From Levilactobacillus humaensis (GTDB taxonomy: Bacteria > Bacillota > Bacilli > Lactobacillales > Lactobacillaceae), in contig NZ_BROB01000010.1 of NCBI RefSeq assembly GCF_024345185.1, positions 1 through 64,000 on the forward strand: a stretch of DNA of 64,000 nucleotides, read 5' to 3'. Positions 48,243 through 63,425 of the stretch are shown piece by piece. The position numbers and the translations under genes were made by a program. Below the pieces are notes generated by a model. That model made no database searches. It saw nothing but the letters and a program-made list of their open reading frames with translations, and was not told the DNA's origin. Within the stretch, counting starts at the first letter, position 1; every line of letters begins with the position of its first letter.

Positions 48243-48270
48243 CCTTCACACTCCTAAACTCTCAAGTCTG

Positions 48271-48449
48271 CCGCCGCGGGTGGTCAGGGACGCCATCCTG
48301 TGGGGCACGGTCGAAGCCAAAGAACGGTCTTCAACCTCGCCTCCAAGCCCCACCAAAACCGTGGGTCTTGCAGACGTCCCGTGCTGTAACCCCGGAAGAA
48401 CACCGGGCTAACACCACCGACACAGGATTCTGCCCTAACCACCCACGGC
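48271..48449 (+). repeat. structured palindromic element, class I, copy 1
   Basis: About 178 bp. Outer stem: GCCG-GGGTGGT-ATCCTGTG pairs with CACAGGAT-ACCACCC-CGGC. Inside are three hairpins: GGTCGAAG/CTTCAACC with the conserved loop part CCAAAG..CGGT; CTCCAAG-CCCAC/GTGGG-CTTGCAG; and CCCGG/CCGGG. Conserved unpaired parts: GACGTCCCGTGCTGTAA and AACACCACCGACA. Strand is given as the sense that reads GTCCCGTGCTGT. No open frame of note. Confidence 0.85.
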
Positions 48450-48511
48450 TAACTTATCGGAACGTCTTTCCCGACAGCACGTATATTCTAAAACATGCAT
48501 AACCAACCCAG

Positions 48512-48687
48512 CCACAGACAAACAGGGGTGGAACCCCGTGTCGGTGGTGTTAGGTTGGCGAACTTTCCAACCTTACAGCAGGGGACGCTTTGAAGACCAC
48601 AATCTTAGACCTTCAAAACGACTTCGAAGACCGCTCTTTAGCTTCGAACGGACCCCACAAGGTGGAATCCCCCGGTTGTCTCCGGCT
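48512..48687 (-). repeat. structured palindromic element, class I, copy 2
   Basis: Reverse orientation. Same plan as copy 1 but the most diverged in sequence: the third hairpin is GGTTGG/CCAACC where other copies have GGCCGG/CCGGCC, and the second hairpin arm is TTTGAAG/CTTCAAA. The pairing is kept although bases differ. The outer stem includes AGCC..AGACAA / TTGTCT..GGCT. Confidence 0.8.
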
Positions 48688-48755
48688 AGTACTTCATAAT
48701 CTTAAAACTTCGGATATCTAAATCATGACACCTCATCACCTACTAATTTTCAATA

Positions 48756-48933
48756 GCTGGTGATGGTTCGGGACGGAGTCCTGTGTCGGTGGTGTTAGGT
48801 CGGCGATTTGCCGGCCTTACAGCACGGGACGTCTTCAAGACCCACGGACTTTGTGGGGCTTGGAGGCGAGACCGAAGACCGCCTTTTGGCTTCGGCCGTG
48901 CCCCACAGGATGGAGACCCGAGCCACCACCGGC
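48756..48933 (-). repeat. structured palindromic element, class I, copy 3
   Basis: Reverse orientation, 178 bp. Hairpins GGCCGAAG/CTTCGGTC, CCAAG-CCCAC/GTGGG-CTTGAAG and GGCCGG/CCGACC; conserved GTCCCGTGCTGTAA and AACACCACCGACACAGG. It is the copy nearest to the ABC exporter promoter. Confidence 0.85.
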
Positions 48934-49033
48934 GATCACGAAAACTTTCAGGTGAGATTACGTGCCGTTAGGCAGCTGGTCTGGTAAAGTAATAGCCGAC
49001 AGTTAGCCGGGCACCCGCCATGTTTGCAACACC

Positions 49034-49093
49034 CTGTTGAAATGTGTTGCATTCACAACAGTTCTGTTGACATTGGCGGTTGCCAACTGACAG
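49034..49093 (+). promoter_or_regulatory. candidate operators upstream of ABC exporter
   Basis: Dyad 1 (49034-49061): CTGTTG-A-AATG / CATT-CA-CAACAG. Dyad 2 (49064-49093): CTGT...TTGGC / GCCAA...ACAG, which overlaps the -35 at 49080-49085. They are good candidates for the binding sites of the divergent TetR protein. Confidence 0.45.
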
Positions 49094-49108
49094 TACAATT
49101 TTTATGAT
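49080..49108 (+). promoter_or_regulatory. ABC exporter promoter
   Basis: TTGCCA, 17 bp, TATGAT; about 90 bp before the start codon. Confidence 0.55.
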
Positions 49109-49196
49109 ATAAGACACAGTGTTGCAGTAATGACAATTTTACCAGAAAAAGCCCTGTAACACCAACACTAGTCAAATAATGAAAGGATTATTTCGA

Positions 49197-51527
49197 ATGC
49201 TGGAACTCAAACATATTAAAAAATATTACTACGTGGGGGATTCCGTCACCAAGGCACTTGATGACGTCTCCGTCGCCTTCCGTTCCCAGGAGTTCGTGGC
49301 CATTCTCGGACCTAGTGGTTCCGGGAAGACCACCATGCTGAATGGTATTGGTGGCTTAGACATCTACGACTCCGGTGATCTTGCCATCGAAGGGAAATCC
49401 ACCAAGGACTTCTCCGCTTCCGATTGGGATGCCTACCGAAACAATTCCGTCGGGTTCATCTTCCAAAGCTATAACATTATCGGTCACCTCAGTATCCTCG
49501 ATAACGTGGAAATGGGGATGACACTGAGTGGTGTACCTAACGCCGAGAAGAAGGAAAAGGCCCGCAAGGCTCTCGACCGGGTTGGCCTGACGCCTCACAT
49601 TAATAAGAAACCCAACCAACTTTCCGGGGGTCAACTTCAACGGGTCGCTATCGCGCGAGCCATTGCCAACGAACCCGAAATTCTTTTGTGTGACGAACCC
49701 ACCGGTGCCCTCGATACCGAGACCAGTGAAGAAATCATGCAACTGATCAAGGAACTTTCCGCAGAGCGCCTGGTGATCATGGTCACCCATAACCCTGACC
49801 TGGCTCACCAATATGCGGACCGGATCATCGAATTTGCCGATGGGAAGATTCAACACGACTCGAACCCTTACGACGACCATGCCGATGCCGAACAATTCAA
49901 ATTAAAAAAGACCAAGATGACCTTCTGGACGGCCTTGAAGCTATCCTTTAACAACATCCGAACCAAGAAGGGTCGGACCGCGTTAACGGCCTTCGCCTCC
50001 AGTATTGGGATCATCGGCATCGCCGTGGTCTTGGCGTTATCCAACGGTTTCCAAACACAAATCAACAAGACTCAGGCCAACACACTGGCTCAGTTCCCCG
50101 TCACCATTTCACAGACGGCGACGAGTACCACGGGAGCTCAGAACAGTAATGACAAGGTCAAGTCGTCTAACGCCAAGCAAGTCACGGCTAAGGTCAGTGA
50201 CCAAGATAAGGCAACTCATACCAACAAGCTTACCAAGGATTACTTAAACTATGTTAAAAAACTCGATCCAAAATTAAGTAAGAACGTCACTTACACCTAC
50301 TCCACTGGGATGAACCTCCTGCGGCAAGTCGATGGCAAGACCAAGACGGTCTCCTTCTCCAACGCCGACAGCAACAATAACTCCGGTGCCATGCAGGCCG
50401 CGATGTCCGCCTCAACTGGAGTCGGCGGTTCCGTTTATCCCAGTGCTAATGATGGCGGCTTAAACTTCCTGAAGAAACACTACAAGCTCGTTTCCGGAAG
50501 CTATCCTAAGAAGGCCACCGATGTCATCCTGATCGTCGATCGCGATGGGTCAACCAACATCAATGCCCTGAAGAACTTAGGGTATTCAGTGAAGGCCAAC
50601 CAAAAGTTTAGCTACAACAAGATTGTTGGCACATCGATTAAAATTGTGAACAACAATGACTACTACCAGAGCCTTCCTACTGGAAACTACGTGCCAAATA
50701 AGGCCACGAACTCCCTGTACAACAACAGTAATAACACCACGCTGAAGGTTGCCGGGATCGTGAAGGTGAAGTCCAAGTCTTCCGAAAATGTTTTGGCTTC
50801 AGGGATTGCCTACAGCGACAAGCTCACCCAAGACATTATCCAGAAGAACAAAGATTCCAAGATTGTGAAGGCCCAGAAGAAGGCCAGTGACAACGTGATG
50901 ACCGGCCAAAGCGTCGACAGCACCACGAAGAAGTCCCTGGTCAGCTACCTTGGTGGGTCCACCACGCCAGCTAGCATCCTAATCTACCCGAACACCTTCA
51001 AGAACAAGGACAAGGTTCTCTCTTACCTCGACAAGTACAACAAGGGTAAGTCCAAATCGGACAAAGTCATCTATACCGATATGGCCGGTACCGTGTCTGA
51101 CCTGACCGGTGGCCTGATGGACGCGATTACCTACGTCCTCGTTGCCTTTGCTGGTATCTCGTTGGTAACCAGTATGATTATGATTGCCATCATCACCTAC
51201 ACGTCAGTTCTCGAACGGACCAAGGAAATCGGGATTCTCAAGGCCTTAGGTGCCCGGAAGAAAGATATCACCCGCGTCTTTGATGCCGAAACATTCATTC
51301 TTGGGGTTGGTTCCGGGGTCTTAGGGGTCGTCATTGCCTGGCTCCTGACGTTCCCAATCAACGTCGTTTTGAAGAATATTACCGACCTGAGCAACGTCGC
51401 CCACCTCAACCCGGTTCACGGGATTATCCTGATTATCATCAGTACGGTTCTGACCATGTTGGGTGGCCACATTCCAGCACGGATGGCTGCGAAGAAGGAC
51501 GCCGCTACGGCCTTACGTTCTGAATAA
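49197..51527 (+). CDS. MacB-type ABC exporter, fused ATPase and permease
   Basis: 776 residues in one chain. ATPase domain about 1-225: Walker A GPSGSGKTT, signature LSGGQLQRVAIARA, Walker B LLCDEPTGALD, H-loop VTHNPD. Then a membrane helix (ALTAFASSIGIIGIAVVLAL), a 400-residue outside domain rich in Lys/Ser/Asn, and three C-terminal membrane helices with the FtsX/MacB core (VLERTKEIGILKALGARKKDI). Such proteins export antimicrobial peptides or act in envelope stress. The ATG at 49197 has AAAGGA 9 nt upstream. Likely under the TetR gene. Confidence 0.92.
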   Translation: MLELKHIKKYYYVGDSVTKALDDVSVAFRSQEFVAILGPSGSGKTTMLNGIGGLDIYDSGDLAIEGKSTKDFSASDWDAYRNNSVGFIFQSYNIIGHLSILDNVEMGMTLSGVPNAEKKEKARKALDRVGLTPHINKKPNQLSGGQLQRVAIARAIANEPEILLCDEPTGALDTETSEEIMQLIKELSAERLVIMVTHNPDLAHQYADRIIEFADGKIQHDSNPYDDHADAEQFKLKKTKMTFWTALKLSFNNIRTKKGRTALTAFASSIGIIGIAVVLALSNGFQTQINKTQANTLAQFPVTISQTATSTTGAQNSNDKVKSSNAKQVTAKVSDQDKATHTNKLTKDYLNYVKKLDPKLSKNVTYTYSTGMNLLRQVDGKTKTVSFSNADSNNNSGAMQAAMSASTGVGGSVYPSANDGGLNFLKKHYKLVSGSYPKKATDVILIVDRDGSTNINALKNLGYSVKANQKFSYNKIVGTSIKIVNNNDYYQSLPTGNYVPNKATNSLYNNSNNTTLKVAGIVKVKSKSSENVLASGIAYSDKLTQDIIQKNKDSKIVKAQKKASDNVMTGQSVDSTTKKSLVSYLGGSTTPASILIYPNTFKNKDKVLSYLDKYNKGKSKSDKVIYTDMAGTVSDLTGGLMDAITYVLVAFAGISLVTSMIMIAIITYTSVLERTKEIGILKALGARKKDITRVFDAETFILGVGSGVLGVVIAWLLTFPINVVLKNITDLSNVAHLNPVHGIILIIISTVLTMLGGHIPARMAAKKDAATALRSE

Positions 51528-51545
51528 TCTCTAAACTAGAATTTC

Positions 51546-51584
51546 TAAAGGGACTGCTAACCTGTGAGTTAGTAGTCCCTTTTG
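51546..51584 (+). terminator. terminator after ABC exporter
   Basis: AAGGGACT-CTAAC / GTTAG-AGTCCCTT stem followed by TTTTG. Confidence 0.88.
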
Positions 51585-51595
51585 TTTTGGAGATC

Positions 51596-51782
51596 GGCAA
51601 CCGTGGTGGTACTGGACGCCTTACCGGCCGGCAGCTAGGGGCTGGAACGGTGCGAACACAACTTGAAGCCTCGAAGCCCACGAGTCTTCAAGCTTGGTTT
51701 TCTCCTAAGCCAGTGAGAAGCTCACTCACTGACTAAGGAGAACGACGCGCCTGAGCCCCTATCTGCCGACCTCACGGCTTAG
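51596..51782 (+). repeat. structured palindromic element, class II, copy 1
   Basis: 187 bp, about 91 percent identical to 55297-55483 by my hand count. A closing stem (GGCAG-TAGGGGCT / AGCCCCTA-CTGCC) encloses hairpin CTTGAAG-CCTCG / CGAG-TCTTCAAG and a long stem GTTTTCTCCTAAG-CAGTGAG / CTCACTGACTAAGGAGAAC. Non-coding. The strand given is arbitrary but the same for both copies. Confidence 0.85.
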
Positions 51783-51994
51783 GTGGAAGCACCGAAGCAA
51801 CTTCTATCGACACCATTGAAACGAGTAGGATAGTCCTGTTTAAACATTTGGAACCACTGTTCTCCTTCCCCACTAACGATGATTTCGACAATCACTAGAC
51901 ACTGAGACACTCGAATATACTGGACAACCTCAATTAGAACGCCGCCAAGCTCTGAATAATTAAGAAACGCAACTTCGTTATTGTCGAGTACTAA

Positions 51995-52182
51995 CCTAGC
52001 CGGAGGAGGCCAGGGATGGAGCCGGCCGTGGCGGTGGTGTTAGCCGAGTGCTTTTCTCGGCCTTACACCACGGGCGGCTTTGAAGACTCGCGCCTCTGGC
52101 GGGGCTTCAAACCGAGCGAGAAGCCCACAGGGCTGAAGCGTCCCCACAGCAGGCGGAATCCCTGGCAGCCGCAGGCGGCCAA
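51995..52182 (-). repeat. structured palindromic element, class I-prime, copy 1
   Basis: 188 bp. Ends GCCGGAGGAGGCCAGGGAT / ATCCCTGGCAGCC...GGCGGC pair. It shares the class I core in the reverse sense (GGTGGTGTTAG-hairpin-CCTTACACCACGGG) and the CCCCACAG part, but the outer arms differ. Follows the class II element by 212 bp. Confidence 0.8.
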
Positions 52183-52195
52183 TCTAATTCAATCC

Positions 52196-52237
52196 ATAAA
52201 AAAACTCGCAGTCCAAAATGGATTGCGAGTTTTGAAT
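52196..52237 (-). terminator. terminator after alsD
   Basis: AAACTCGCA-TCC / GGA-TGCGAGTTT stem followed by TTTTT on the minus strand. Confidence 0.9.
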
Positions 52238-52246
52238 TCTAAGTCA

Positions 52247-52963
52247 TTAACCCTCGGCCTGATGCAGATCGCCCATGATGTCATCTTGTGAGAAATCATG
52301 TTGTTGGTAATCAGTATCACCGACGGGTAAGTGTTGTTCCAGGGTGTCGAAGATCTGAATCTGAACCTCTCCAGTCACGCGACCGCAACCCAGGAGGTGA
52401 CCCCCAAAGGTATGGTCGTCATCCAAGAAGTGGTCGTGATAGCCCCCGACCGCAACGCCGTCAAATATCTGTGGGGAGTAGTATCCCAACAAGGTCCCCT
52501 TCACCGTGTCGCGAGTGAAGATACTCTGGTTCTCAGCGGTTTCAGCCAAGGACTTGAATGGTCGACTGGATTTGGCTACCGCGCGGGTTTTCACATCCGT
52601 AAAGGTCCCGGTCACCATGATCGAGAAAAATGTATTCGCGCCGTGAGTCAGGGCCAAGACTTGGTCATGGACCTCTTCACGCGTGGCATTTTCCACCGTG
52701 AGTAATGGCCGATAGTCGGCGAAGTGACTGTTGGCAAATGGCAACGTAAAGTCGTCACCAACGACCGTCACTTTCCCCGCGCTGTTAACCTGGTAAGGCT
52801 TGCCGTCTAAGATAATCAGCTCACCATCCAGGCCTTCACCCGTCCCAATTCCGGTATCCCCGTGGGCCAATAGGGTCCGCATTGGCAAGGTTCCCGTCAA
52901 TAATCCTGGCACCAATAAGGCCAGCGTTCCGTGTTGATATAAGGTTGTTGTCTTCATCGTCAT
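52247..52963 (-). CDS. alsD: alpha-acetolactate decarboxylase
   Basis: Converts acetolactate to acetoin, second step of the pyruvate-to-acetoin route that disposes of excess pyruvate without acid. Seen: FQHGTL-like opening LYQHGTLALL, TGIGTGEGLDGE, and the zinc-site segment VGGYHDHFLDDDHTFGGHLL. 238 residues, normal. It follows alsS by 9 bp, so the two form an operon ended by a terminator. Confidence 0.96.
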   Translation of the reverse strand: MTMKTTTLYQHGTLALLVPGLLTGTLPMRTLLAHGDTGIGTGEGLDGELIILDGKPYQVNSAGKVTVVGDDFTLPFANSHFADYRPLLTVENATREEVHDQVLALTHGANTFFSIMVTGTFTDVKTRAVAKSSRPFKSLAETAENQSIFTRDTVKGTLLGYYSPQIFDGVAVGGYHDHFLDDDHTFGGHLLGCGRVTGEVQIQIFDTLEQHLPVGDTDYQQHDFSQDDIMGDLHQAEG

Positions 52964-52972
52964 GACTTCCTT

Positions 52973-54655
52973 TTAGCTTAAGACATCTTCGAGTAACAAG
53001 GACTTTAATTGTAAATTGTCGCGGTAATCCACGGGGATTTCCACCACGACTGGGCCATTGGCGGCCGTCGTAAAGGCTTCACTCAGGGTGCTTGCCAGAT
53101 CGGCGGCGTGATCCACGCGCAACCCAGTAGCGCCAAAGCTTTCGGCATACTTCACGTAGTCCACGGGACCAAAGCTAACCGCGGCATCATGACCGTATTT
53201 GGCAATTTCTTGGAACCGGACCATGTCATAGTAACCGTCAGTCCAAATGATCTGCACAATCGGCAAGTTCAACCGCACAGCCGTCTCGAGTTCCTGGCTG
53301 GAGAACAGGAAACCACCGTCACCGGCAACCGAAACAATCGGCTGGCCGGGTCGTTCGAGTGCGGCCGCAATCGCCCATGGAAAAGCGACGCCCAACGTTT
53401 GCATCCCGTTACTGAATAGCAGGTGCCGAGGTTGGTAGCTCCGGAAGTAACGCGCCATCCAAATGTAGAAACTCCCGACGTCTACCGTCACGGTTGTCTC
53501 GTCATTCACTTGAGCCTGTAAGGCCTGGATGATCGCTAATGGGTGAATCCCATGGTCGTCATCTGGTGTTGGGGCTTCCGCCTGGGCAGCTAATTTGTCA
53601 CCCAAATCGGTCAATTTTGCTTGAACCTCACTGGATAAGGCCCAGTCGCTTGGCAAGGCCTGACCCAACGCATGCAGGGTCTTGGCAATGTCGGCGTGAA
53701 TCACTAATCCTGGTTGGTAATCGGTGGTAATTTCTGGGGCAACGCTATCGAGACTGACCACTTCGCCCGTCCGATCGGCATTCCAGATCCGCGCTTCGTA
53801 TTCCACGGGATCGTAGCCCACCGTGATCACCAGGTCACTTTCCTTTAGAAGGTTATCCCCGATTTGGTTTCTGAAGAGACCCACGCGCCCAAAGTAGTTG
53901 CGAACCAGGTCACGAGAAACAACACCGGCCCCCTGGAACGTTTCAACCACTGGGATCTCGGCGTGACCTAACAACTCGCGAATCGCGGTCGTCACGTCAC
54001 TGGCTGAGGCCCGCATACCGGCTAAAATCACTGGTAATTTGGCATGCGTCATCTTGTCAACCAGCGCACTGATCGTTGCGGGATCGGCAACCCCCTGGTC
54101 AATAGTTGGTACGGCCTTAATTTCTGGGCGGTCAACCTCACCGTTTAACACGTTTTGTGGTAAGGAGATGAACGTTGCCCCCGCCTTAGGTGCTCGCGCC
54201 GTTTGATAGGCGTTGGCAAAGGCTTCGGAGAGGCTGTTAGCGTTCTGAACTTCGACACTGGACTTGGTGGCCGAACTCAGGAGTTCCTTACTAGGAATAC
54301 TCTGGTGCGTCAGACGGCCAATGTCGTCTTGGGGAACCTGTCCACCCAGGGCAACGACGGGATCGCCTTCCGCGGTCGCCGTAATCAAACTAGTGGTCAA
54401 GTTGGAAACCCCAGGACCCGAGGTGGTTGCCACCACACCAGGTTCCCCGGTGATCCGACCAATCCCGGACGCAATCAAGGCGGCATTCTGTTCGTGCCGA
54501 GTCACAATGACCTTTGGTGCTCGTGGGTCCTTGCTGTACGCCAGGCCTTCGAAGAGTTGGTCAACCTTCGCGCCCGGAATACCGAACACGTACTTGATAC
54601 CCTGATTAATCATGCTTTGAATTAACGCTTGTGCGCCAGTCTTGGTTTTTGTCAT
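52973..54655 (-). CDS. alsS: catabolic acetolactate synthase AlsS
   Basis: TPP enzyme that condenses two pyruvates to acetolactate. Seen: the N-terminal GIPGAKVDQLFEGL with the catalytic Glu in VTRHEQNAA, the GPGVSNL segment, and the TPP motif GDGGFLFSSQELETAVRLN. About 560 residues; no FAD-type extension, in keeping with the catabolic type. The ATG at 54653-54655 has GGGGGA upstream; the frame 7 codons longer overlaps that site. Operon with alsD, divergent from the MarR gene. Confidence 0.96.
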   Translation of the reverse strand: MTKTKTGAQALIQSMINQGIKYVFGIPGAKVDQLFEGLAYSKDPRAPKVIVTRHEQNAALIASGIGRITGEPGVVATTSGPGVSNLTTSLITATAEGDPVVALGGQVPQDDIGRLTHQSIPSKELLSSATKSSVEVQNANSLSEAFANAYQTARAPKAGATFISLPQNVLNGEVDRPEIKAVPTIDQGVADPATISALVDKMTHAKLPVILAGMRASASDVTTAIRELLGHAEIPVVETFQGAGVVSRDLVRNYFGRVGLFRNQIGDNLLKESDLVITVGYDPVEYEARIWNADRTGEVVSLDSVAPEITTDYQPGLVIHADIAKTLHALGQALPSDWALSSEVQAKLTDLGDKLAAQAEAPTPDDDHGIHPLAIIQALQAQVNDETTVTVDVGSFYIWMARYFRSYQPRHLLFSNGMQTLGVAFPWAIAAALERPGQPIVSVAGDGGFLFSSQELETAVRLNLPIVQIIWTDGYYDMVRFQEIAKYGHDAAVSFGPVDYVKYAESFGATGLRVDHAADLASTLSEAFTTAANGPVVVEIPVDYRDNLQLKSLLLEDVLS

Positions 54656-54692
54656 CGGTGGGTCCCCCGTTTTCATTTTTTAGTTTAATTGT

Positions 54693-54744
54693 GTTGACAA
54701 GTCAACTTAGAATCATCATAATAGCCTTAAGTTGTTTTGTCAAC
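54693..54744. promoter_or_regulatory. overlapping divergent promoters and paired operators, alsS/marR
   Basis: Minus: TTGACA (54738-54743), 17 bp, TATGAT (54715-54720) for alsS. Plus: TTGACA (54694-54699), 17 bp, CATAAT (54717-54722) for the MarR gene. The -10 boxes overlap. Each -35 is inside a dyad: GTTGAC-AA-GTCAAC (54693-54706) and GTTGTTTTGTCAAC (54731-54744). Confidence 0.75.
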
Positions 54745-54778
54745 ATAGAACCTTTTTCACAACAGAAAGGAGTGCGCC

Positions 54779-55216
54779 ATGATCGATTTAGGTTATCTGG
54801 CTCAGGATATTTCTATCCTCCACCGTAAATATTACAAGGACACCAGCCCGATATTTAAGGACTTGGGGCTGAATCCAACGGCCGCCTGTGTCCTACTGAC
54901 GGTCCACGAGCACCCGGCCATCAATCAAAGCCAAGTTGCCAAGACGCTGGTCATTGATAAAGGCCTCACCACCCGTGAGGTCAACAAGATTCAGGGTCTC
55001 GGCTACCTGACCAAGACTGCCGGGAGTGGCAAAACGCAACTCCTCAGCCTCACCCCGGATGGTGAAGCCGTCGTGGCCCAGGTTCAAGACATTCGTCGTA
55101 GCTGGTGGCAAGCCCGCTTCGACCAAACGGGCATCGATGCCAACAGCCCGTTGATCCCCGCGATCCAAGCCGCGGTGACCAACATCATCGACGATCCCAA
55201 CGTTCCAGCAAAATAG
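54779..55216 (+). CDS. MarR-family regulator
   Basis: 145 residues with a winged helix (INQSQVAKTLVIDKGLTTREVNKIQGLGYL, then the TPDGE wing LLSLTPDGEAVVAQV). ATG 6 nt after AAAGGAG. Divergent from alsS; the 100-bp gap holds two dyads over the two -35 boxes. It likely represses both genes, possibly in response to an acid or a pathway metabolite; the effector is not shown by sequence. Confidence 0.9.
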   Translation: MIDLGYLAQDISILHRKYYKDTSPIFKDLGLNPTAACVLLTVHEHPAINQSQVAKTLVIDKGLTTREVNKIQGLGYLTKTAGSGKTQLLSLTPDGEAVVAQVQDIRRSWWQARFDQTGIDANSPLIPAIQAAVTNIIDDPNVPAK

Positions 55217-55222
55217 AAGATT

Positions 55223-55272
55223 AACGCCTGTCGCCATTCCTTTTTGGGAGTGCGGACAGGCGTTTTATTTTA
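55223..55272 (+). terminator. terminator after marR gene
   Basis: AACGCCTGTC / GACAGGCGTT stem, long loop, then TTTATTTT. Confidence 0.85.
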
Positions 55273-55296
55273 CTTGTATAAATGTGTCCACTAACA

Positions 55297-55483
55297 GGCA
55301 ACCATGGTGGTACGATTCGCCTTACCGGCCGGCAGTTCGGGGCTGGAACGGTGCGAACACAACTTGAAGCCTCGAAATCCCCGAGTCTTCAAGCTTGGTT
55401 TTCTCCTAAGCCAGCGAGAAAAACACTCACTGACTAAGGAGAACGACGCGCCTGAGCCCCGAACTGCCGGCCTCACGGCTTAG
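55297..55483 (+). repeat. structured palindromic element, class II, copy 2
   Basis: 187 bp, same orientation and layout as 51596-51782. The closing stem is CAGTTCGGGGCT / AGCCCCGAACTG here and CAG-TAGGGGCT / AGCCCCTA-CTG there, so the change is paired. Confidence 0.85.
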
Positions 55484-55639
55484 TATAGTAACATTATGGC
55501 AACAATTATCGATACCAACGCAGTTAAGTCAGATTGAAGTTACCTCGGATCATTTCAACTCAAACAACTTGAAACATCACTTCAGAGCAGCTGATAGTAG
55601 CCTGTCCGACGTATCTAAGAATCAAATTGTTAGATACTA

Positions 55640-55688
55640 AAAACGGGTAAGCACCACTTGGCCTCAGCCAGGTGATACTTACCCGTTC
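55640..55688 (-). terminator. terminator, probably for pyrG
   Basis: ACGGGTAAG..CACCTGG / CCA..GGTG.CTTACCCGT hairpin followed by TTTTT on the minus strand. It lies beyond the class I-prime element, so the pyrG transcript would include that element. Confidence 0.75.
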
Positions 55689-55730
55689 AGTACTTCAATT
55701 CAGTTATCTTTAGTTATGGTAAAGCACAGT

Positions 55731-55923
55731 CCTAGCCGGAGGAGGCCAGGGATGGAGCCGGCCGTGGTGGTGATGTTAGACCGAGTGCTTTTCTCGGCCT
55801 TACATCACGGGCGACTTTGAAGACCCGCGCCCCTGGCGGGGCTTCAAATCGAGCGAGAAGCCCGGGTCTCAGGCTGAAGCGTCCCCACAGCAGGCGGAAT
55901 CCCTGGCAGCCGCAGGCGGCCAA
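55731..55923 (-). repeat. structured palindromic element, class I-prime, copy 2
   Basis: 193 bp, very close to 51995-52182, with GCCGGAGGAGGCCAGGGATGG and the paired right end. Starts 247 bp after the class II copy; it lies just downstream of the pyrG stop and before its terminator. Confidence 0.85.
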
Positions 55924-55942
55924 CTTGAACTAACCTAGAAAA

Positions 55943-57586
<1,644 letters not shown>

Positions 57587-57590
57587 CTAT

Positions 57591-57622
57591 AAAAAAACTC
57601 CCTATTCATTCGGAATAGGGAG
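57591..57622 (-). terminator. pyrG leader attenuator hairpin
   Basis: 10-bp perfect stem CTCCCTATTC / GAATAGGGAG and TTTTTTT on the minus strand, inside the pyrG leader. The 5' arm CUCCCU can pair with added G residues at the transcript's 5' end. Confidence 0.9.
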
Positions 57623-57663
57623 CTACTTCACCGTTCAGTTGTCCTCACTACAAGTAGCAAGGA

Positions 57664-57703
57664 GCCCAAAAAACATACTAACTGTTTTTCGACTGTAGGT
57701 CAA
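57664..57703 (-). promoter_or_regulatory. pyrG promoter with GGGC start site
   Basis: Minus-strand TTGACC (57698-57703), 17 bp, TAGTAT (57675-57680), then 7 nt to GGGCTCC (start about 57667). It matches the Bacillus pyrG promoter and start. Confidence 0.85.
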
Positions 57704-57718
57704 GCAAACATTTTCAAT

Positions 57719-58369
57719 TTACTTTTGATCGCTGTCTTCTTCGTCATCGTCGGCTTCATCATCGTCATCAGAGAAGTCGAGATTGTCGGTGTCATCGTCG
57801 TCCGGGGCTTCCATCTGAGAAAGCTGGTCTTCGATACCATCTGGGATGTCTTCCGAAGCATCTTCTTCGTCATCGTCATCGATGCCTAAGCCGGTCTGTA
57901 ACTTGCCCAGGTCTGGCGTTGAACCGGTTGAATCGTCATCATCGTCGTCATCACTGGCGTACGAGGTGTCGTCATCTTCTGGATCATCGTCATCGTAATC
58001 GATTACGTCGTCGTCATCGGTCGTGTCAGCGAGGAAGGCGTTAACCTTCTTACGCTTCTTACGCTTAGGTTGATCTTCATCTTCCTCAGCGTGAACCGTC
58101 GCTTCATCGATGGATTCAAACGGATACCAAGTTCGCAGTCCCCAGAGGTTATCACCCAGAGAAATGAAACTACCATCGACATTTAAATCCGTATAGAATT
58201 GGGACAGCCGGTTACGAACTTCTGCGTCACTGTCGCCCAAATAGGCTTGCACGGCGTTTGCTAAGTCGGCAAATGCCATCACGTCACCGTGTTGAGACAA
58301 AATGGCGTGAGCAACTTCGATCATTGATAATTCCTTTTTATTCTGGCCCTCAAAGACTTTTAATTCCAA
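57719..58369 (-). CDS. rpoE: RNA polymerase delta subunit
   Basis: RNA polymerase accessory protein that raises recycling and specificity. The N-terminal HARE-HTH domain (LKVFEGQNKKELSMIEVAHAIL) is followed by a long disordered tail made almost only of Asp/Glu with one Lys/Arg patch (PKRKKRKKV). 216 residues. The start is TTG at 58367-58369, with AAAGGA upstream. The frame is open for seven more codons upstream, without support. It precedes pyrG, the conserved rpoE-pyrG order. Confidence 0.95.
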   Translation of the reverse strand: MELKVFEGQNKKELSMIEVAHAILSQHGDVMAFADLANAVQAYLGDSDAEVRNRLSQFYTDLNVDGSFISLGDNLWGLRTWYPFESIDEATVHAEEDEDQPKRKKRKKVNAFLADTTDDDDVIDYDDDDPEDDDTSYASDDDDDDDSTGSTPDLGKLQTGLGIDDDDEEDASEDIPDGIEDQLSQMEAPDDDDTDNLDFSDDDDEADDDEEDSDQK

Positions 58370-58413
58370 ACTGGTGCACGTCCTTTCCACAGTCTACGAA
58401 ATATGATACTCGT

Positions 58414-58854
58414 TTATGCCGTAAATTGCAATCGAATCTTGTAGTTCCCGACTAATTCTTCACCAGCATAGAGCAGGTAGTCAATCTTAACGTTTCCGCT
58501 AAATGGTCGCTCCTGAAAACTGGTCTCCAGATATGGCGTCACGGTCTCGATTGGCATGATGCCATAAGGCGTCTTGTAGCGCGCCGTGACCCGTTTGCCA
58601 CTGATGAAATGTAACCGAAGCTCGGCCTCCGCGTTTCGCGTCAGGTGGACCTCACCTTCTGGCGTGAACTTCATCGTCACGGGTGTTTCCTTCCCCGTCT
58701 CTTGATCGGGTTCCAGGTAGCGAAGATAGAGATTTAAGCCCATCTGAACGAGCTGACCCTCCACATCTAAGCGGTAGTCGGAAACGTCTCCATCCTGTTT
58801 AATATGCGTTTCCAAGTGAATCATCACGGGCACCCCCGTTGATAACTGATCCAT
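58414..58854 (-). CDS. DUF1934 protein (YwiB-like)
   Basis: 146 residues, a calycin-like beta-barrel by family. Seen: MIHLETHIKQDGD, LYLRYLEPDQETG, MKFTPEGEVHLTR and the end YKIRLQF. The ATG at 58852-58854 lies 7 nt after GGGAG. Upstream of rpoE on the same strand. Its biochemical role is unknown. Confidence 0.85.
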   Translation of the reverse strand: MDQLSTGVPVMIHLETHIKQDGDVSDYRLDVEGQLVQMGLNLYLRYLEPDQETGKETPVTMKFTPEGEVHLTRNAEAELRLHFISGKRVTARYKTPYGIMPIETVTPYLETSFQERPFSGNVKIDYLLYAGEELVGNYKIRLQFTA

Positions 58855-58888
58855 CTGCACACTCCCTTTCCGTGAATTGTCTGCGTTA

Positions 58889-58894
58889 ATTATA
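58889..58894 (-). promoter_or_regulatory. DUF1934 promoter -10
   Basis: Consensus TATAAT on the minus strand, 35 bp before the start; the -35 is weak. Confidence 0.45.
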
Positions 58895-58962
58895 GTTCAT
58901 TTTTCATGGAAAACCTATTCTTTATACTTTAATTCAAGGTGAATTATATGCGAAGAATCTCA

Positions 58963-59140
58963 CCTTCGGTGGGCAGGGATGACACCCTGTGGGGAACGGG
59001 CGAAGCCAAAGAACGGTCTTCGCCCTCGCCTGCAAGCCCCACCAAACCCGTGGGTCTCGCAGACGTCCCGTGCTGTAAGGCCGGAAACCCACCGGCCAAA
59101 ACACCACCGACACAGGGTGACATCCCCGCCCGCCTACGGC
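58963..59140 (+). repeat. structured palindromic element, class I, copy 4
   Basis: 178 bp with the best-formed outer stem: GGGCaGGGATGaCACCCTGTG pairs with CACAGGGTGaCATCCCcGCCC. Inner hairpins GGGCGAAG/CTTCGCCC, TGCAAG-CCCAC/GTGGG-CTCGCA, GGCCGG/CCGGCC. It lies between two divergent genes, so it is probably not in a 3' UTR. Confidence 0.87.
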
Positions 59141-59301
59141 TACGATCCAGCACTCAAGGTAATCTTAAATACCCTACCGTAATCAGCAAACTAATATTAA
59201 TCGCTAATGATATTGGTATTGATCATTCGTAGTAACTATCAAGTTTTCTCCAAACACACGGAGCACAAATCTAGTCTAACCCCACCCCTACATCCCCAAC
59301 C

Positions 59302-59330
59302 ATGACGGGGCCTAAGTTTTCTAGTATAAT
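59302..59330 (+). promoter_or_regulatory. promoter of lipL-like operon
   Basis: ATGACG, 17 bp, TATAAT (59325-59330), 40 bp before the start. Confidence 0.6.
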
Positions 59331-59369
59331 GAAAACATTGAACCTAGACGACTGAAAGGGGGATGTCTC

Positions 59370-60191
59370 TTGGCACCATTTAATTTAGCGACCAACCGGA
59401 TTCAGACGCTGACGACAGCCATTGCGGCCGAACAGAAGAATCAGGCTTTCGGCTACACCAATGCCCTGCTGGATCTAATCCCCCGGCTTAAACAGCCCAT
59501 ATTGCACTTCTGGACCATGCCGCCAACTGTCATCATGGGGATTAAGGATAAGCGGCTACCATACCTTACAGACGCTGTCAGCGCCATTCACAGCTATGGC
59601 TACGACCATGTTCTCCGGAATTCCGGCGGATTAGCCGTGGTGGCCGACGGCGGCATTCTAAATGTCTCGTTGTTTCAGCCCTTAACGACTCCTGCCCTTA
59701 GCGTGGCTGGGGCCTATGACCAGATGCTGGACCTGATGGCAGCCGCCTGGCCGGAACTCGACCTGGCCCATCACGAGATCACCCGTTCCTATTGTCCGGG
59801 TGACTACGATCTCAGCGTCAACAACCGCAAGATTGCCGGGATTTCGCAACGTCGAAGTCCGCACGCCATGGTGACCATGCAGTACCTCAGTGTCACCGGT
59901 GACCAGCTCACCCGGGGAAGTCTGGTTCGCGATTTCTACCGTGCGGGTCTTGGGGACCATCCCAACAATTGGAACTTTCCCGACGTCGATCCCGATGTCA
60001 TGACCACCGTGGCGGATCTCCTGGGTCTTCCATTCACCGTGGAAGACGCCCAGCAACGGATCCTTGGGGCCTGCACCACGGCTGGACTCGACATCGGCCA
60101 AGGCAAATTAACCGCGGCCATGGCGACCCCTTGGTTTCAGGATCGTTTAGCCCACGCGACCGCCCTCATGGCGCGCCGCCAACCCATTTAA
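59370..60191 (+). CDS. lipoyl/octanoyl transferase, LipL-like
   Basis: 273 residues of the BPL/LplA/LipB fold. The lipoate-family loop RNSGGLAVVADGGILNVSL is present, and RSYCPGDYDLSVNNRKIAGISQRR matches LipL, whose catalytic Cys lies in the SYCPGDYDL motif. LipL moves octanoyl/lipoyl groups from GcvH to the E2 subunits of 2-oxoacid dehydrogenases; an LplA-type ligase is the alternative. The start is TTG 59370 with GGGGG 7 nt upstream; the ATG just before is out of frame. Followed by the HD gene after 28 bp. Confidence 0.82.
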   Translation: MAPFNLATNRIQTLTTAIAAEQKNQAFGYTNALLDLIPRLKQPILHFWTMPPTVIMGIKDKRLPYLTDAVSAIHSYGYDHVLRNSGGLAVVADGGILNVSLFQPLTTPALSVAGAYDQMLDLMAAAWPELDLAHHEITRSYCPGDYDLSVNNRKIAGISQRRSPHAMVTMQYLSVTGDQLTRGSLVRDFYRAGLGDHPNNWNFPDVDPDVMTTVADLLGLPFTVEDAQQRILGACTTAGLDIGQGKLTAAMATPWFQDRLAHATALMARRQPI

Positions 60192-60219
60192 ACGTTTAAA
60201 TCAAGAAGGAGGAATCACT

Positions 60220-61599
60220 GTGAGTTACGCAACTGCTCGGTTACCCCGAGAAAAGGTCTTTCGCGACCCCGTTCACAACTATATTTACGTTCAACATCAA
60301 GTTATTTTAGACTTAATCAACACCCGTGAATTTCAACGGCTACGGCGTATCAAACAACTCGGAACCGCTTCGCTTATCTTCCATGGGGCCGAGCACTCGC
60401 GTTTCACCCACTCGCTGGGGGTCTATGAAGTCACCCGACAGATCTGTGATAACTTCCAACGCAACTATCCCATGGAAATCCCTGGTGACGGCGGTTGGGA
60501 CGACCGTTATCGGTTAACGGCCTTATGTGCCGCTCTCTTGCACGATATCGGCCACGGCCCTTATTCCCACACCTTTGAACACATCTTCCACACGGATCAC
60601 GAAGCCATTACCGCCGAAATCTTGACGTCACCGACCACCGAGGTTAACCAGGTCTTACGGCGCGTCAGCCCGACCTTCCCCGAAGAGGTTGCAAGTGTTA
60701 TTCAAAAGACCCATCCGAACCCCCAGGTGGTTCAGATGATCTCCAGTCAAATCGACGCTGACCGCATGGATTACCTCCTGCGTGACGCCTATTTCACGGG
60801 AACCGAATACGGAACCTTCGACATTACTCGAATTCTGCGGGTCATGCGCCCTTACAAGGACGGGATCGCCTTTGCCATGAACGGGATGCACGCCGTCGAA
60901 GACTACATCATCAGTCGGTTCCAGATGTATCAGCAAGTGTACTTCCACCCGGTTTCCCGGGCCATGGAAGTCATCTTGGATCACCTGCTGGCCAGAGCCA
61001 ATGAGCTCTACCAAAACGGTAATGAGGATGAGAGCTTCGTGCCCCATTTACTCTTACCATTCTTCAATCACGAGTTCGATCTCAAGGACTACCTGAACCT
61101 CGATGACGGAGTACTGACCACCTATTTCATTCACTGGCGTGATTCCGATGACGAGATTCTGGCCGACCTGGCTCACCGTTTCCTTGATCGAAAACCCCTG
61201 AAGAGTGTGATCTTCTCTGAAGAGACACAGGACCTGATTCCGCATCTCCGCGACCTCATCGCCTCGGCTGGATTCAACATCGACTACTACACGGCTACCG
61301 ACAACAGTTACGACCTGCCTTACGATGATGCCTACGACCCGCGGGTCACGCATCCCCTAACGCAGATCGAACTTCAGGAACCGGATGGATCACTGCGAGA
61401 ACTCTCAACAGTATCGGACCTGGTCAACGCGATTCGGGGTAAATTCTCTGGGGACCAACGTTTCTTCTTCCCTAAGGAAATGCTTAGCCCGGATAGTCAC
61501 GATCCCGAGTTGTTCCAACCCATTTACGATGAATTCAAACAATACATTCAAAACAACCAGTTGATTCAGCCGAAGGAGACTGATCACCATGACCATTAA
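60220..61599 (+). CDS. HD-domain phosphohydrolase (dNTPase-like, YwfO type)
   Basis: 459 residues. HD metal ligands: HSRFTHSLGVYEV (H), ALLHDIGHGPYSH (HD) and DADRMDYLLRDAYFTG (D), the pattern of the SAMHD1/dGTPase-like enzymes such as Enterococcus EF1143. It probably removes triphosphate from dNTPs. GTG start with AAGGAGG upstream. The 3' end overlaps the next gene by 11 bp, so they are coupled. Confidence 0.9.
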   Translation: MSYATARLPREKVFRDPVHNYIYVQHQVILDLINTREFQRLRRIKQLGTASLIFHGAEHSRFTHSLGVYEVTRQICDNFQRNYPMEIPGDGGWDDRYRLTALCAALLHDIGHGPYSHTFEHIFHTDHEAITAEILTSPTTEVNQVLRRVSPTFPEEVASVIQKTHPNPQVVQMISSQIDADRMDYLLRDAYFTGTEYGTFDITRILRVMRPYKDGIAFAMNGMHAVEDYIISRFQMYQQVYFHPVSRAMEVILDHLLARANELYQNGNEDESFVPHLLLPFFNHEFDLKDYLNLDDGVLTTYFIHWRDSDDEILADLAHRFLDRKPLKSVIFSEETQDLIPHLRDLIASAGFNIDYYTATDNSYDLPYDDAYDPRVTHPLTQIELQEPDGSLRELSTVSDLVNAIRGKFSGDQRFFFPKEMLSPDSHDPELFQPIYDEFKQYIQNNQLIQPKETDHHDH

Positions 61600-62398
61600 A
61601 CTCATCGCCGTGGATATTGACGGCACCCTCCTCAACGAAAATGACGAGCTGACGCCTGGTACCATTCAGGCAATTCAAACGGCCCGTGACCGGGGTATCA
61701 AGGTGGTCTTGTGTACCGGGCGGCCGCTCACCGGGGTCACGCCATATCTGGACGCCCTTGGCCTGAACGGTGATGACCAATACGTCATCACTTATAATGG
61801 ATCGATAGCCGAAACTGTCTCTGGTAAAGTGCTGACGAAACATTCACTCAGCTATAACGATTACGTTGATTTGGAAGCTCTCGCCCGAAAATTTCAGGTT
61901 CACTTCCAAGTTTTGACCCCCGATCACATCTACACCGCCGATCAGGACATCAGTCCCCACACAGTCACCGAGAGTCACTTCGTCCATCTCCCCCTCCGCT
62001 ATCGAGCGGCGTCGGACATGCCTCGCGACCTCTTGATGCCCACGGCCATCTTCATCGACGATGCCCCCGTCCTTGACCAAGTTGAGGACCAATTACCCCG
62101 CGAGATTTACGATCGGTTCTACGTGGTGCGCACCATGCCCTACTTTATCGAGGTGCTCAGCAAAAATGTCAGCAAGGGCAACACGCTGGCCGAGCTCGCT
62201 GCGACCCTAGGGTTCACCGCCGCCGAAGTCATGGCGATCGGTGATCAGAACAACGATCTCCCGATGCTGACCTACGCCGGCCTCGGGGTGGCCATGGGAA
62301 ACGCCAACGATGCCGTGAAGGCCGTCGCCGATACAGTGACGACGCCCAACACCGCCGATGGCGTGGCCACCGCAATTCAACGTTACGCCCTACCCTAA
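61589..62398 (+). CDS. HAD-superfamily Cof-type phosphatase, copy 1
   Basis: 269 residues. HAD motif [13 protein letters not shown], motif II CTGRP, motif III/IV SKGNTLAELA and AIGDQNNDLPM, with a Cof-type cap. These act on sugar phosphates or other small phosphates; the substrate is not known. It overlaps the HD gene and is a tandem paralogue of the next gene. Confidence 0.93.
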   Translation: MTIKLIAVDIDGTLLNENDELTPGTIQAIQTARDRGIKVVLCTGRPLTGVTPYLDALGLNGDDQYVITYNGSIAETVSGKVLTKHSLSYNDYVDLEALARKFQVHFQVLTPDHIYTADQDISPHTVTESHFVHLPLRYRAASDMPRDLLMPTAIFIDDAPVLDQVEDQLPREIYDRFYVVRTMPYFIEVLSKNVSKGNTLAELAATLGFTAAEVMAIGDQNNDLPMLTYAGLGVAMGNANDAVKAVADTVTTPNTADGVATAIQRYALP

Positions 62399-62425
62399 CG
62401 ACATGAAGGAGAATTGACGACTAAC

Positions 62426-63235
62426 ATGACAATTAAAATGATCGCCATTGATATCGATGGCACCTTACTCAATGAAAAGAACGAACTGGCTCCCGCCACT
62501 ATCGCCGCGGTTCAAGCCGCTACGGCCAAGGGCATTAAGGTTGTGCTATGTACTGGCCGGCCACTGACCGGAGTTCAACCCTACCTCGATGCATTGGAAC
62601 TGAGTGGTGACGACCAATATGCCATCACCTACAACGGATCGGTTTCCCAGACTGTTTCTGGGAAGATGATGACCAACCACTCTCTCAGTTACAACGACTT
62701 CATCGACTTGGAAGCTCTCGCCCGGAAACTCCAGGTCCACTCCCAAATCGAAACGCCCGACTACATCTACACACCCAACAAGGATATCTCGGCCTATACG
62801 ATCGCCGAAAGTATGCTAGTGAAGATGCTCATCCGTTACCGGGCCGTTGGTGAAATCAGCCGCGACCTAACGATTTCTAAGGCCATGTTTGTCGACCACA
62901 AGGACATCATTGACCGCGTCAATGCCGAGATTCCACAAGAATTCCGGGACCGGTTCTACGTCGTTCAAAGCACACCATTCTTCGTTGAAATCATGAACAA
63001 GCAAGCTAGCAAAGGGAACACGCTGGGTGAACTCGCAACCAAGCTGGGCTTTACCGCCGATGACGTCATGGCCATCGGGGACCAAGGTAACGATCTGACC
63101 ATGATCGAATACGCTGGTCTCGGGGTTGCCATGGGTAACGCCATCGACGAAGTTAAGGAAGCAGCACAGGTCACGACGCTTACCAACGTTGAAGACGGTG
63201 TCGCAGCCGCCATCCATAAGTACGTCTTAGACTAA
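62426..63235 (+). CDS. HAD-superfamily Cof-type phosphatase, copy 2
   Basis: 269 residues, same length and motifs as copy 1 ([51 protein letters not shown]). By eye about two thirds of residues are the same, so it is a tandem duplicate. I take ATG 62426; a TTG four codons upstream is closer to AAGGAG and cannot be ruled out. Confidence 0.92.
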
Positions 63236-63247
63236 ATTTGTTTGGGT

Positions 63248-63425
63248 GCCGCCTACGGTGGACAAGGTTCCGTCCTGTGGGGCCCGGAAGAAGCCAAAGT
63301 GCGGTCTTCTTCCTCGCTTTAAGCCCCACCAAAAACGTGGGTCTTAAAGTCGTCCCGTGCCGTAAGGCCGGAGGTTCACCGGCCAAACACCACTGACACA
63401 GGATTCCACCTTGTCCTCCTCCGGC
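63248..63425 (+). repeat. structured palindromic element, class I, copy 5
   Basis: 178 bp. Outer arms GCCG..GGACAAGGT..TCCTGTG / CACAGGA..ACCTTGTCC..CGGC. Inner hairpins GGAAGAAG/CTTCTTCC, CTTTAAG-CCCAC/GTGGG-CTTAAAG, GGCCGG/CCGGCC. The first two stems differ from other copies but pair perfectly. Lies between the end of the HAD gene and a terminator. Confidence 0.87.

What the first reader, a model, noticed from the sequence alone, without database searches (positions are those of the whole stretch)
48271..63425. Class I structured elements: 178-bp repeats whose stems co-vary
Five class I copies (48271, 48512, 48756, 58963, 63248) share a long outer stem, three inner hairpins and constant unpaired parts (GTCCCGTGCTGTAA, AACACCACCGACACAGG, the CCAAAG..CGGT loop part). 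In the first hairpin the third pair is A-T, G-C, C-G and T-A in four different copies, and the fourth is A-T or C-G. In the third hairpin GGCCGG/CCGGCC becomes GGTTGG/CCAACC in copy 2. Such paired changes with fixed loops mean the fold itself is kept, more like a structured RNA family than decaying repeats. I do not recognise it as a described family. It could be a processed 3' UTR or sRNA element, a protein-binding cruciform, or an ERIC-like mobile palindrome.
Basis: seen in the sequence. Interest (0 to 1): 0.85.

Follow-up and report, generated by a model that had tools for sequence, protein, structure and literature searches.

The report
Mobile cloverleaf DNA modules in Levilactobacillus
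These repeats belong to a very large family of foldable, non-coding DNA modules scattered through the genomes of beer and sourdough bacteria; in some species they ride inside small jumping elements, and many copies change far more slowly than the DNA around them, so the fold seems to matter although its job is unknown.

Summary
Five class I copies lie where stated and fold alike; 30 copies from the same genome covary strongly (93.8% of cells paired, 79.9% after shuffling). The 'constant unpaired' parts in fact pair with each other. A covariance model finds about 129 sites in this genome and hits 32 of 35 Levilactobacillus genomes. Rfam has no match in the window. None of 85 mapped modules overlaps a called gene by over 60 bases. 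Neighbours lie +-, ++ or --, never -+ (0 of 84); the 5' end faces the nearer gene 182 to 12. In L. brevis modules sit inside 390-749-bp MITE-like units, six with 8-bp target duplications at 7 or 8 of 8 bases; a 1,559-bp IS4-family element with matching ends exists in a relative. No such ends were found at this genome's modules. In 35 of 46 shared sites the module survives in a sister species: median identity 0.947 against 0.855 in flanks. G.U is not favoured over A.C. Best reading: old MITE-borne cloverleaf modules kept by constraint on the fold; mobility shown in relatives, function inferred.

The parts
48267..48453 (+). class I module, copy 1; outer stem and three hairpins
   Evidence: cmsearch 185.8 bits; fold
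48507..48692 (-). class I module, copy 2 (diverged)
   Evidence: 147.6 bits; alignment A1
48752..48939 (-). class I module, copy 3
   Evidence: 187.6 bits; fold
51596..51782 (+). class IV module, facing the class II module at 51995; the model hit covers 51612-51782, the start is taken from the direct repeat
   Evidence: 41.7 bits; fold; direct repeat D1
51995..52182 (-). class II module
   Evidence: 145.1 bits; fold
55297..55483 (+). class IV module, facing the class II module at 55731; the model hit covers 55313-55483
   Evidence: 46.1 bits; fold; direct repeat D1
55731..55923 (-). class II module, 20 bp from the stop codon of the gene at 55943 (pyrG by my reading); relatives G008 and G042 have only a scar here
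   Evidence: 150.1 bits
58956..59144 (+). class I module, copy 4; only about 25 bases of the 3' end remain in G045 and G008
   Evidence: 190.1 bits
63245..63429 (+). class I module, copy 5, 10 bp after a stop codon; ortholog in G045 96% identical
   Evidence: 187.2 bits

Best explanation
The five copies belong to a genus-wide superfamily of about 165-195-bp cloverleaf modules (a long outer stem, three hairpins, conserved bulges and junctions; at least five sequence classes in this genome). Shown in relatives: modules are carried one or two at a time inside MITE-like units (TIR CTAAAGGTTG[CA]AAGT, 8-bp target duplication), facing inward where there are two; an IS4-family element with the same ends exists in the genus and can be expected to move them in trans. 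Inferred for the window's genome: its modules arrived the same way long ago; TIRs, arms and spacers have decayed beyond recognition, while many modules are kept by constraint on the fold. Inferred function: a two-way device. Because the 5' ends face outward, a transcript entering from either flanking gene meets a module in the sense direction first, so I take the likeliest role to be insulation or end-processing of inbound transcription, or binding of a structure-specific protein at the folded DNA. The mobile origin is much better supported than this role.
For: Covariation. Genus range: 32 of 35 genomes by model at E 1e-5, the 50 listed pattern matches all Levilactobacillus, 0 of 16 genomes from eight other families; none on PLSDB plasmids for three queries, none in INPHARED for one class II query. 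None of 85 modules overlaps a called gene by more than 60 bases. Dyad rule: +- 61, ++ 13, -- 10, -+ 0; 5' end nearer a gene 182 to 12. L. brevis units: of 18 candidate TIR pairs in 33 loci, four have target duplications of 8/8 and two of 7/8, mean 4.7 against 3.0 across units; 8 of 23 units against 9.1% in the control. Autonomous 1,559-bp IS with the near-identical TIR, 8-bp duplication and a 450-aa IS4-family transposase, 470 bits against a cut-off of 250. TIR units with modules also in G014 and G018. Constraint: 35 orthologous modules, median identity 0.947 against 0.855 in flanks, higher in 33 of 35, p 4e-10; fourfold divergence 0.231; in 7 of the 10 fetched L. brevis pairs, modules 0.905 and 0.954 against spacer 0.759 and arms 0.794 and 0.672.
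Against: No TIR with target duplication at the window genome's own modules: 1 of 55 units against a control rate of 0.025; 0 of 84 with a TIR trace at 3 or fewer mismatches. In four other named species 1 of 120 modules had one, and 1 of 86 units had TIR plus duplication, control 0.004. Three class II paralog pairs in G000 share the module but little or no flank, which also fits dispersal of single modules without a shell. Twelve modules lie 2-20 bp after a stop codon, leaving no room for a 75-100-bp arm unless it was deleted. Twelve of the 18 candidate TIR pairs show 6 or fewer of 8 duplication bases (some are alternative pairings at one locus). The role in transcription is not tested, and G.U is not favoured over A.C (16 to 17 among modules downstream of a same-strand gene). 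The constraint is measured on survivors: of 46 sites shared with G045, 35 were used, 9 were truncated, rearranged, lost or replaced and 2 had under 140 bases left. Of the five named copies only copy 5 is among the 35; copies 1-4 are partial in G045, while copy 1 has a 0.969 ortholog in G008.
Confidence: 0.6

Rival explanations
1. A multi-copy structured RNA family acting as RNA: modules are transcribed as 3' or 5' UTR parts or sRNAs and the RNA fold is selected.
For: Strong covariation; RNA fold z-scores; slow evolution at orthologous sites; paired sites 0.0415 against unpaired 0.100 substitutions; many modules 2-100 bp after a stop codon in sense.
Against: G.U not favoured over A.C. Upstream gene on the same strand in only 48 of 79 (G000) and 60 of 117 (other species). 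No Rfam match. Transcription was not tested.
Confidence: 0.2
2. A REPIN-like sequence population: inverted pairs replicated by a RAYT (HUH, Y1) transposase and kept for mutual benefit.
For: Inverted pairs, extragenic, persistent across a genus, as described for REPINs (PMC3116915, passages read; PMC8049555, abstract read).
Against: Y1_Tnp is sporadic (23 of 35 genomes); G045, G002 and G011 have modules and no Y1 hit, G021 and G042 have Y1 and no modules. Modules are about 165-195 bp, not 20-60. Pairs join different classes.
Confidence: 0.07
3. Domesticated DNA architecture sites: the folded or bulged DNA binds a nucleoid protein or topoisomerase, as BIMEs bind gyrase (recalled), and the modules are now host functions.
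For: Strand-symmetric changes in stems, retention at shared sites (35 of 46), modules on both sides of one 696-aa ORF in four species, the inward orientation rule.
Against: Three of 35 species have none at E 1e-5 (G015 had one at 1.3e-4), one of them (G042) a close sister, so the system is dispensable. No protein partner found.
Confidence: 0.2
4. No function: stems are kept alike by template switching between arms (quasi-palindrome correction) or by gene conversion between copies.
For: Double changes come in blocks, for example three pairs of the third hairpin at contig 10, 71710, between G000 and G045; three class I sites look replaced, ortholog identity 0.81-0.82, and the facing pair at contig 5, 10150 and 10380, keeps its length but fails the identity filter.
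Against: Orthologs are closer than the best paralog in 27 of 35, one of which has no paralog in its class, so conversion does not dominate; unpaired sites are below the fourfold rate too (0.100 against 0.231); outside the replaced sites doubles are few (8 kept, 2 broken).
Confidence: 0.1

Closest known systems
MITEs of IS4-type insertion sequences
   Same: In L. brevis, G014 and G018: short units, TIR nearly the same as that of an IS4-family IS, 8-bp target duplications, no transposase
   Different: Carry one or two large cloverleaf modules that are more conserved than the unit's arms and spacer; in the window's genome modules persist without any detectable shell
Pneumococcal BOX elements (PMC3049150, passages read)
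   Same: Structured, many copies, old spread with slow present insertion; built of modules
   Different: No sequence relation was tested; here modules face each other, occur across a genus and show measured constraint at shared sites
REPINs/BIMEs (PMC3116915, passages read)
   Same: Inverted pairs of extragenic palindromes, hundreds per genome
   Different: About three to ten times longer, three-hairpin fold, no RAYT partner found, ends of an IS4-family IS in the young units
Efa-1 of Enterococcus faecalis (163 bp, intergenic; tables in PMC2267715, passages read)
   Same: Similar length, intergenic, folds
   Different: Sequence not compared; the term 'L. brevis' does not occur in that paper's main text

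Membership tests
IS4-type MITE | terminal inverted repeats matching an IS of the same genus | tested here: met
   L. brevis CTAAAGGTTGCAAGT; IS in G018 CTAAAGGTTGAAAGT. Not met for the window genome's modules
IS4-type MITE | target site duplication | tested here: met
   8/8 at L249, L251, L258, L263; 7/8 at L265, L269; 6 or fewer in the other candidate pairs. Not met in G000: 1 of 55 units, control rate 0.025
IS4-type MITE | mobilised in trans by the IS transposase | not testable with these tools
   needs a transposition assay
REPIN/RAYT | RAYT (Y1 transposase) in module-bearing genomes | tested here: not met
   PF01797 absent from module-rich G045, G002, G011; present in G021 and G042, which have no modules
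Rfam families | match at the curated score | tested here: not met
   none in the 64-kb window; only matches far below threshold (MIR5635, mir-5615, ftsZ-DE) in two 801-base stretches
structured RNA element | covariation of stems | tested here: met
structured RNA element | G.U tolerated over A.C in stems | tested here: not met
   33 to 39 with G045, 20 to 36 with G008; 16 to 17 and 10 to 19 by context
structured RNA element | transcription | not testable with these tools
   no RNA-seq
BOX/bcr1/ERIC | sequence homology | not tested
   no reference sequences were fetched

The most novel reading that the evidence does not exclude
A transposon-borne structured module has become a genus-wide host or element function: more than a hundred copies per genome, most of those that survive held by purifying selection on their fold, facing inward from gene ends, as a two-way insulator or structural site; a species can lose the whole set, which points to a trans-acting partner still to be found.
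Probability: 0.35. Interest if true: 0.85.

Novelty: new variant of a known kind. Interest (0 to 1): 0.62.

Why it matters
Small structured repeats of bacteria are usually taken for decaying parasites. Here copies at shared sites can be followed between species: those that survive differ about four times less than fourfold sites, while the ends that move them in relatives are gone. That makes the question whether a repeat population is kept for a function directly testable in a harmless food bacterium, with a module-free sister species (G042) as a natural control.

Tried and rejected
RAYT partner: Y1_Tnp distribution does not follow the modules. Reverse transcriptase: RVT_1 absent from G000 and 24 other genomes of 35. 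SbcD as the cause of module loss in G042: present in 35 of 35. Target duplications at modules of G000 and other species by flank scan: no convincing signal among 115 modules. A gene flanked by modules as an autonomous copy: 12 genes in the held stretches; two recur, an ABC transporter gene (window and L. paucivorans) and a 696-aa ORF in four species that reads like lipoteichoic acid synthase (my reading, no family search), both orthologous loci. Plasmid and phage carriers: none for the queries tried. Viral contigs: none for the module core pattern; 44 stretches for the exact 15-base TIR, not followed. Paper searches showed no description of these elements in the titles and abstract starts listed; this is not proof of absence in print.
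Full report
CHECK. The five class I copies are at the stated places. The fold is an outer stem with three hairpins; copies 1 and 3 are far more stable than shuffled sequence as RNA (z -5.2, -5.7), copy 1 less so as DNA (z -3.3). Thirty copies of the same genome, three classes, give 48 predicted pairs, 37 with double changes. Against 500 shuffles: 93.8% of cells paired (79.9), covariation score 0.433 (0.170); sliding the partners drops it to 0.099 or less.

EXTENT. Copy 1 as a BLAST query finds 36 places in the genome. A covariance model from 30 copies finds 135 matches at E 0.01, about 129 sites after leaving out 6 echoes on the other strand of the same place; only 150 of 636 candidates were scored. 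Sixteen genomes from eight other families of the order have none. An exact core pattern over one genome for each of 84,980 species listed 50 stretches, all Levilactobacillus; diverged relatives elsewhere would escape an exact pattern. Rfam has no match in the window.

PLACE AND ORIENTATION. Of 98 model matches in 445 kb of the genome, 85 remained after leaving out 13 echoes; none overlaps a gene called by my own codon-based caller by more than 60 bases; in the other named species 1 of 118 does. Neighbours within 600 bp: +- 28, -- 1, ++ 0, -+ 0 in G000 and +- 33, ++ 13, -- 9, -+ 0 in other named species. The 5' end is the one nearer a gene in 69 of 78 and 113 of 116. The rule does not follow gene direction: the upstream gene is on the same strand in 48 of 79 and 60 of 117. 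Classes, by my clustering threshold, pair freely. In the three ++ pairs that I aligned the homology runs beyond the module into flank or spacer, as in local duplicates.

HISTORY AT EACH SITE. At several sites the relatives keep some 15-25 bases of a module end; G042 has such a scar at the pyrG site. So absence here is at least partly loss.

CONSTRAINT. Of 46 sites whose flanks match in G045, 35 hold a full-length module; 9 hold a truncated, rearranged, lost or replaced one and 2 have under 140 bases left. Over the 35 the median identity is 0.947, that of flanking non-coding DNA 0.855; the module is higher in 33 of 35 (p 4e-10). Fourfold sites on the window's contig differ by 0.231 and codon positions 1 and 2 by 0.026. 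Orthologs beat the best paralog in 27 of 35 (one has no paralog in its class), so gene conversion is not the main cause, though three class I sites look replaced (0.81-0.82). These figures are for survivors. Of the five named copies only copy 5 (0.962) is among them; copies 1-4 are partial or rearranged in G045, and copy 1 has a 0.969 ortholog in G008. With G045 paired sites change at 0.0415 and unpaired at 0.100; outside the replaced sites 8 double changes keep and 2 break a pair. Single changes go to G.U 33 times and to A.C 39 times with G045, 20 and 36 with G008 (the two sets are not independent), and 16 to 17 in modules downstream of a same-strand gene. Selection on one RNA strand should favour G.U; it does not, so the constraint looks like one on DNA, or on both strands.

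MOBILITY. Ten facing pairs that I fetched have spacers of 72-101 bp, eight of them 81-86. Pairs and single modules sit inside units with terminal repeats CTAAAGGTTGCAAGT. Among 18 candidate pairs of such ends in 33 loci, target duplications are exact over 8 bases at four loci and 7 of 8 at two, the rest 6 or fewer; in a second scan 8 of 23 units against 9.1% in shuffled flanks. The six best units are 390-749 bp long and hold one or two modules. The TIR at one mismatch or less occurs 6 or more times in 14 of 35 genomes, mostly as CTAAAGGTTGAAAGT among the matches listed (the list of places is capped). In G018 this variant bounds a 1,559-bp element with an exact 8-bp duplication and a 450-aa transposase of the IS4 family, 470 bits against a cut-off of 250. 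Module-bearing units with this TIR occur in G014 and G018 too; the 384-bp unit of G014 has an exact 8-bp duplication. Among seven of the ten L. brevis pairs the modules are 0.905 and 0.954 identical, the spacer 0.759 and the arms 0.794 and 0.672: the modules are the constrained part of the mobile unit.

THE WINDOW'S GENOME. Here the same test fails: 1 of 55 units against a control rate of 0.025, and 0 of 84 modules with a TIR trace. One 224-bp unit with this TIR and an exact duplication does exist elsewhere in the genome, without a module match. I infer that the window's modules are old insertions whose shells are gone; dispersal of bare modules by another route is not excluded, since some paralogs share little beyond the module.

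FUNCTION. Not shown. The outward 5' ends mean that transcripts entering from either side meet a module in sense first; the IS itself has a perfect palindrome a few bases inside one end. I therefore put insulation or end-processing of inbound transcription first, structure-specific protein binding to DNA second. The lack of a G.U excess weighs against the RNA version.

VERDICT. Its kind, MITE-like structured repeats, is known; the modular cloverleaf cargo, the orientation rule and the measured constraint at shared sites are the new part.

Noticed in passing
G042, whole genome: A close sister species has no module at E 1e-5 and at least one clear scar, so a whole repeat population seems to have been lost.
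   Followed up: partly
71710-71899 of G000 contig 10 (outside the window) and its G045 ortholog: Three pairs of the third hairpin differ on both sides between orthologs that are otherwise 95% alike.
   Followed up: partly
L101, L099, L063, L093 around a 696-aa ORF: Modules flank this ORF on both sides in four species, with doubled copies upstream close to its start.
   Followed up: partly
L327:711-2269: Autonomous IS4-family element with a perfect 40-base palindrome a few bases inside its right end.
   Followed up: partly
L336:1924-2147 (G000 contig 17): 224-bp unit with the same terminal repeats and an exact 8-bp duplication, but no module match.
   Followed up: no
window 48267-48939 in G045: The 5' half of copy 1 is replaced by sequence like that between copies 2 and 3, as if by an inversion between facing modules.
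   Followed up: no
G000 contig 5, 10150-10567, in G045 and G008: A facing pair keeps its place and length but is too diverged to pass the ortholog filter, as if replaced by other copies.
   Followed up: no
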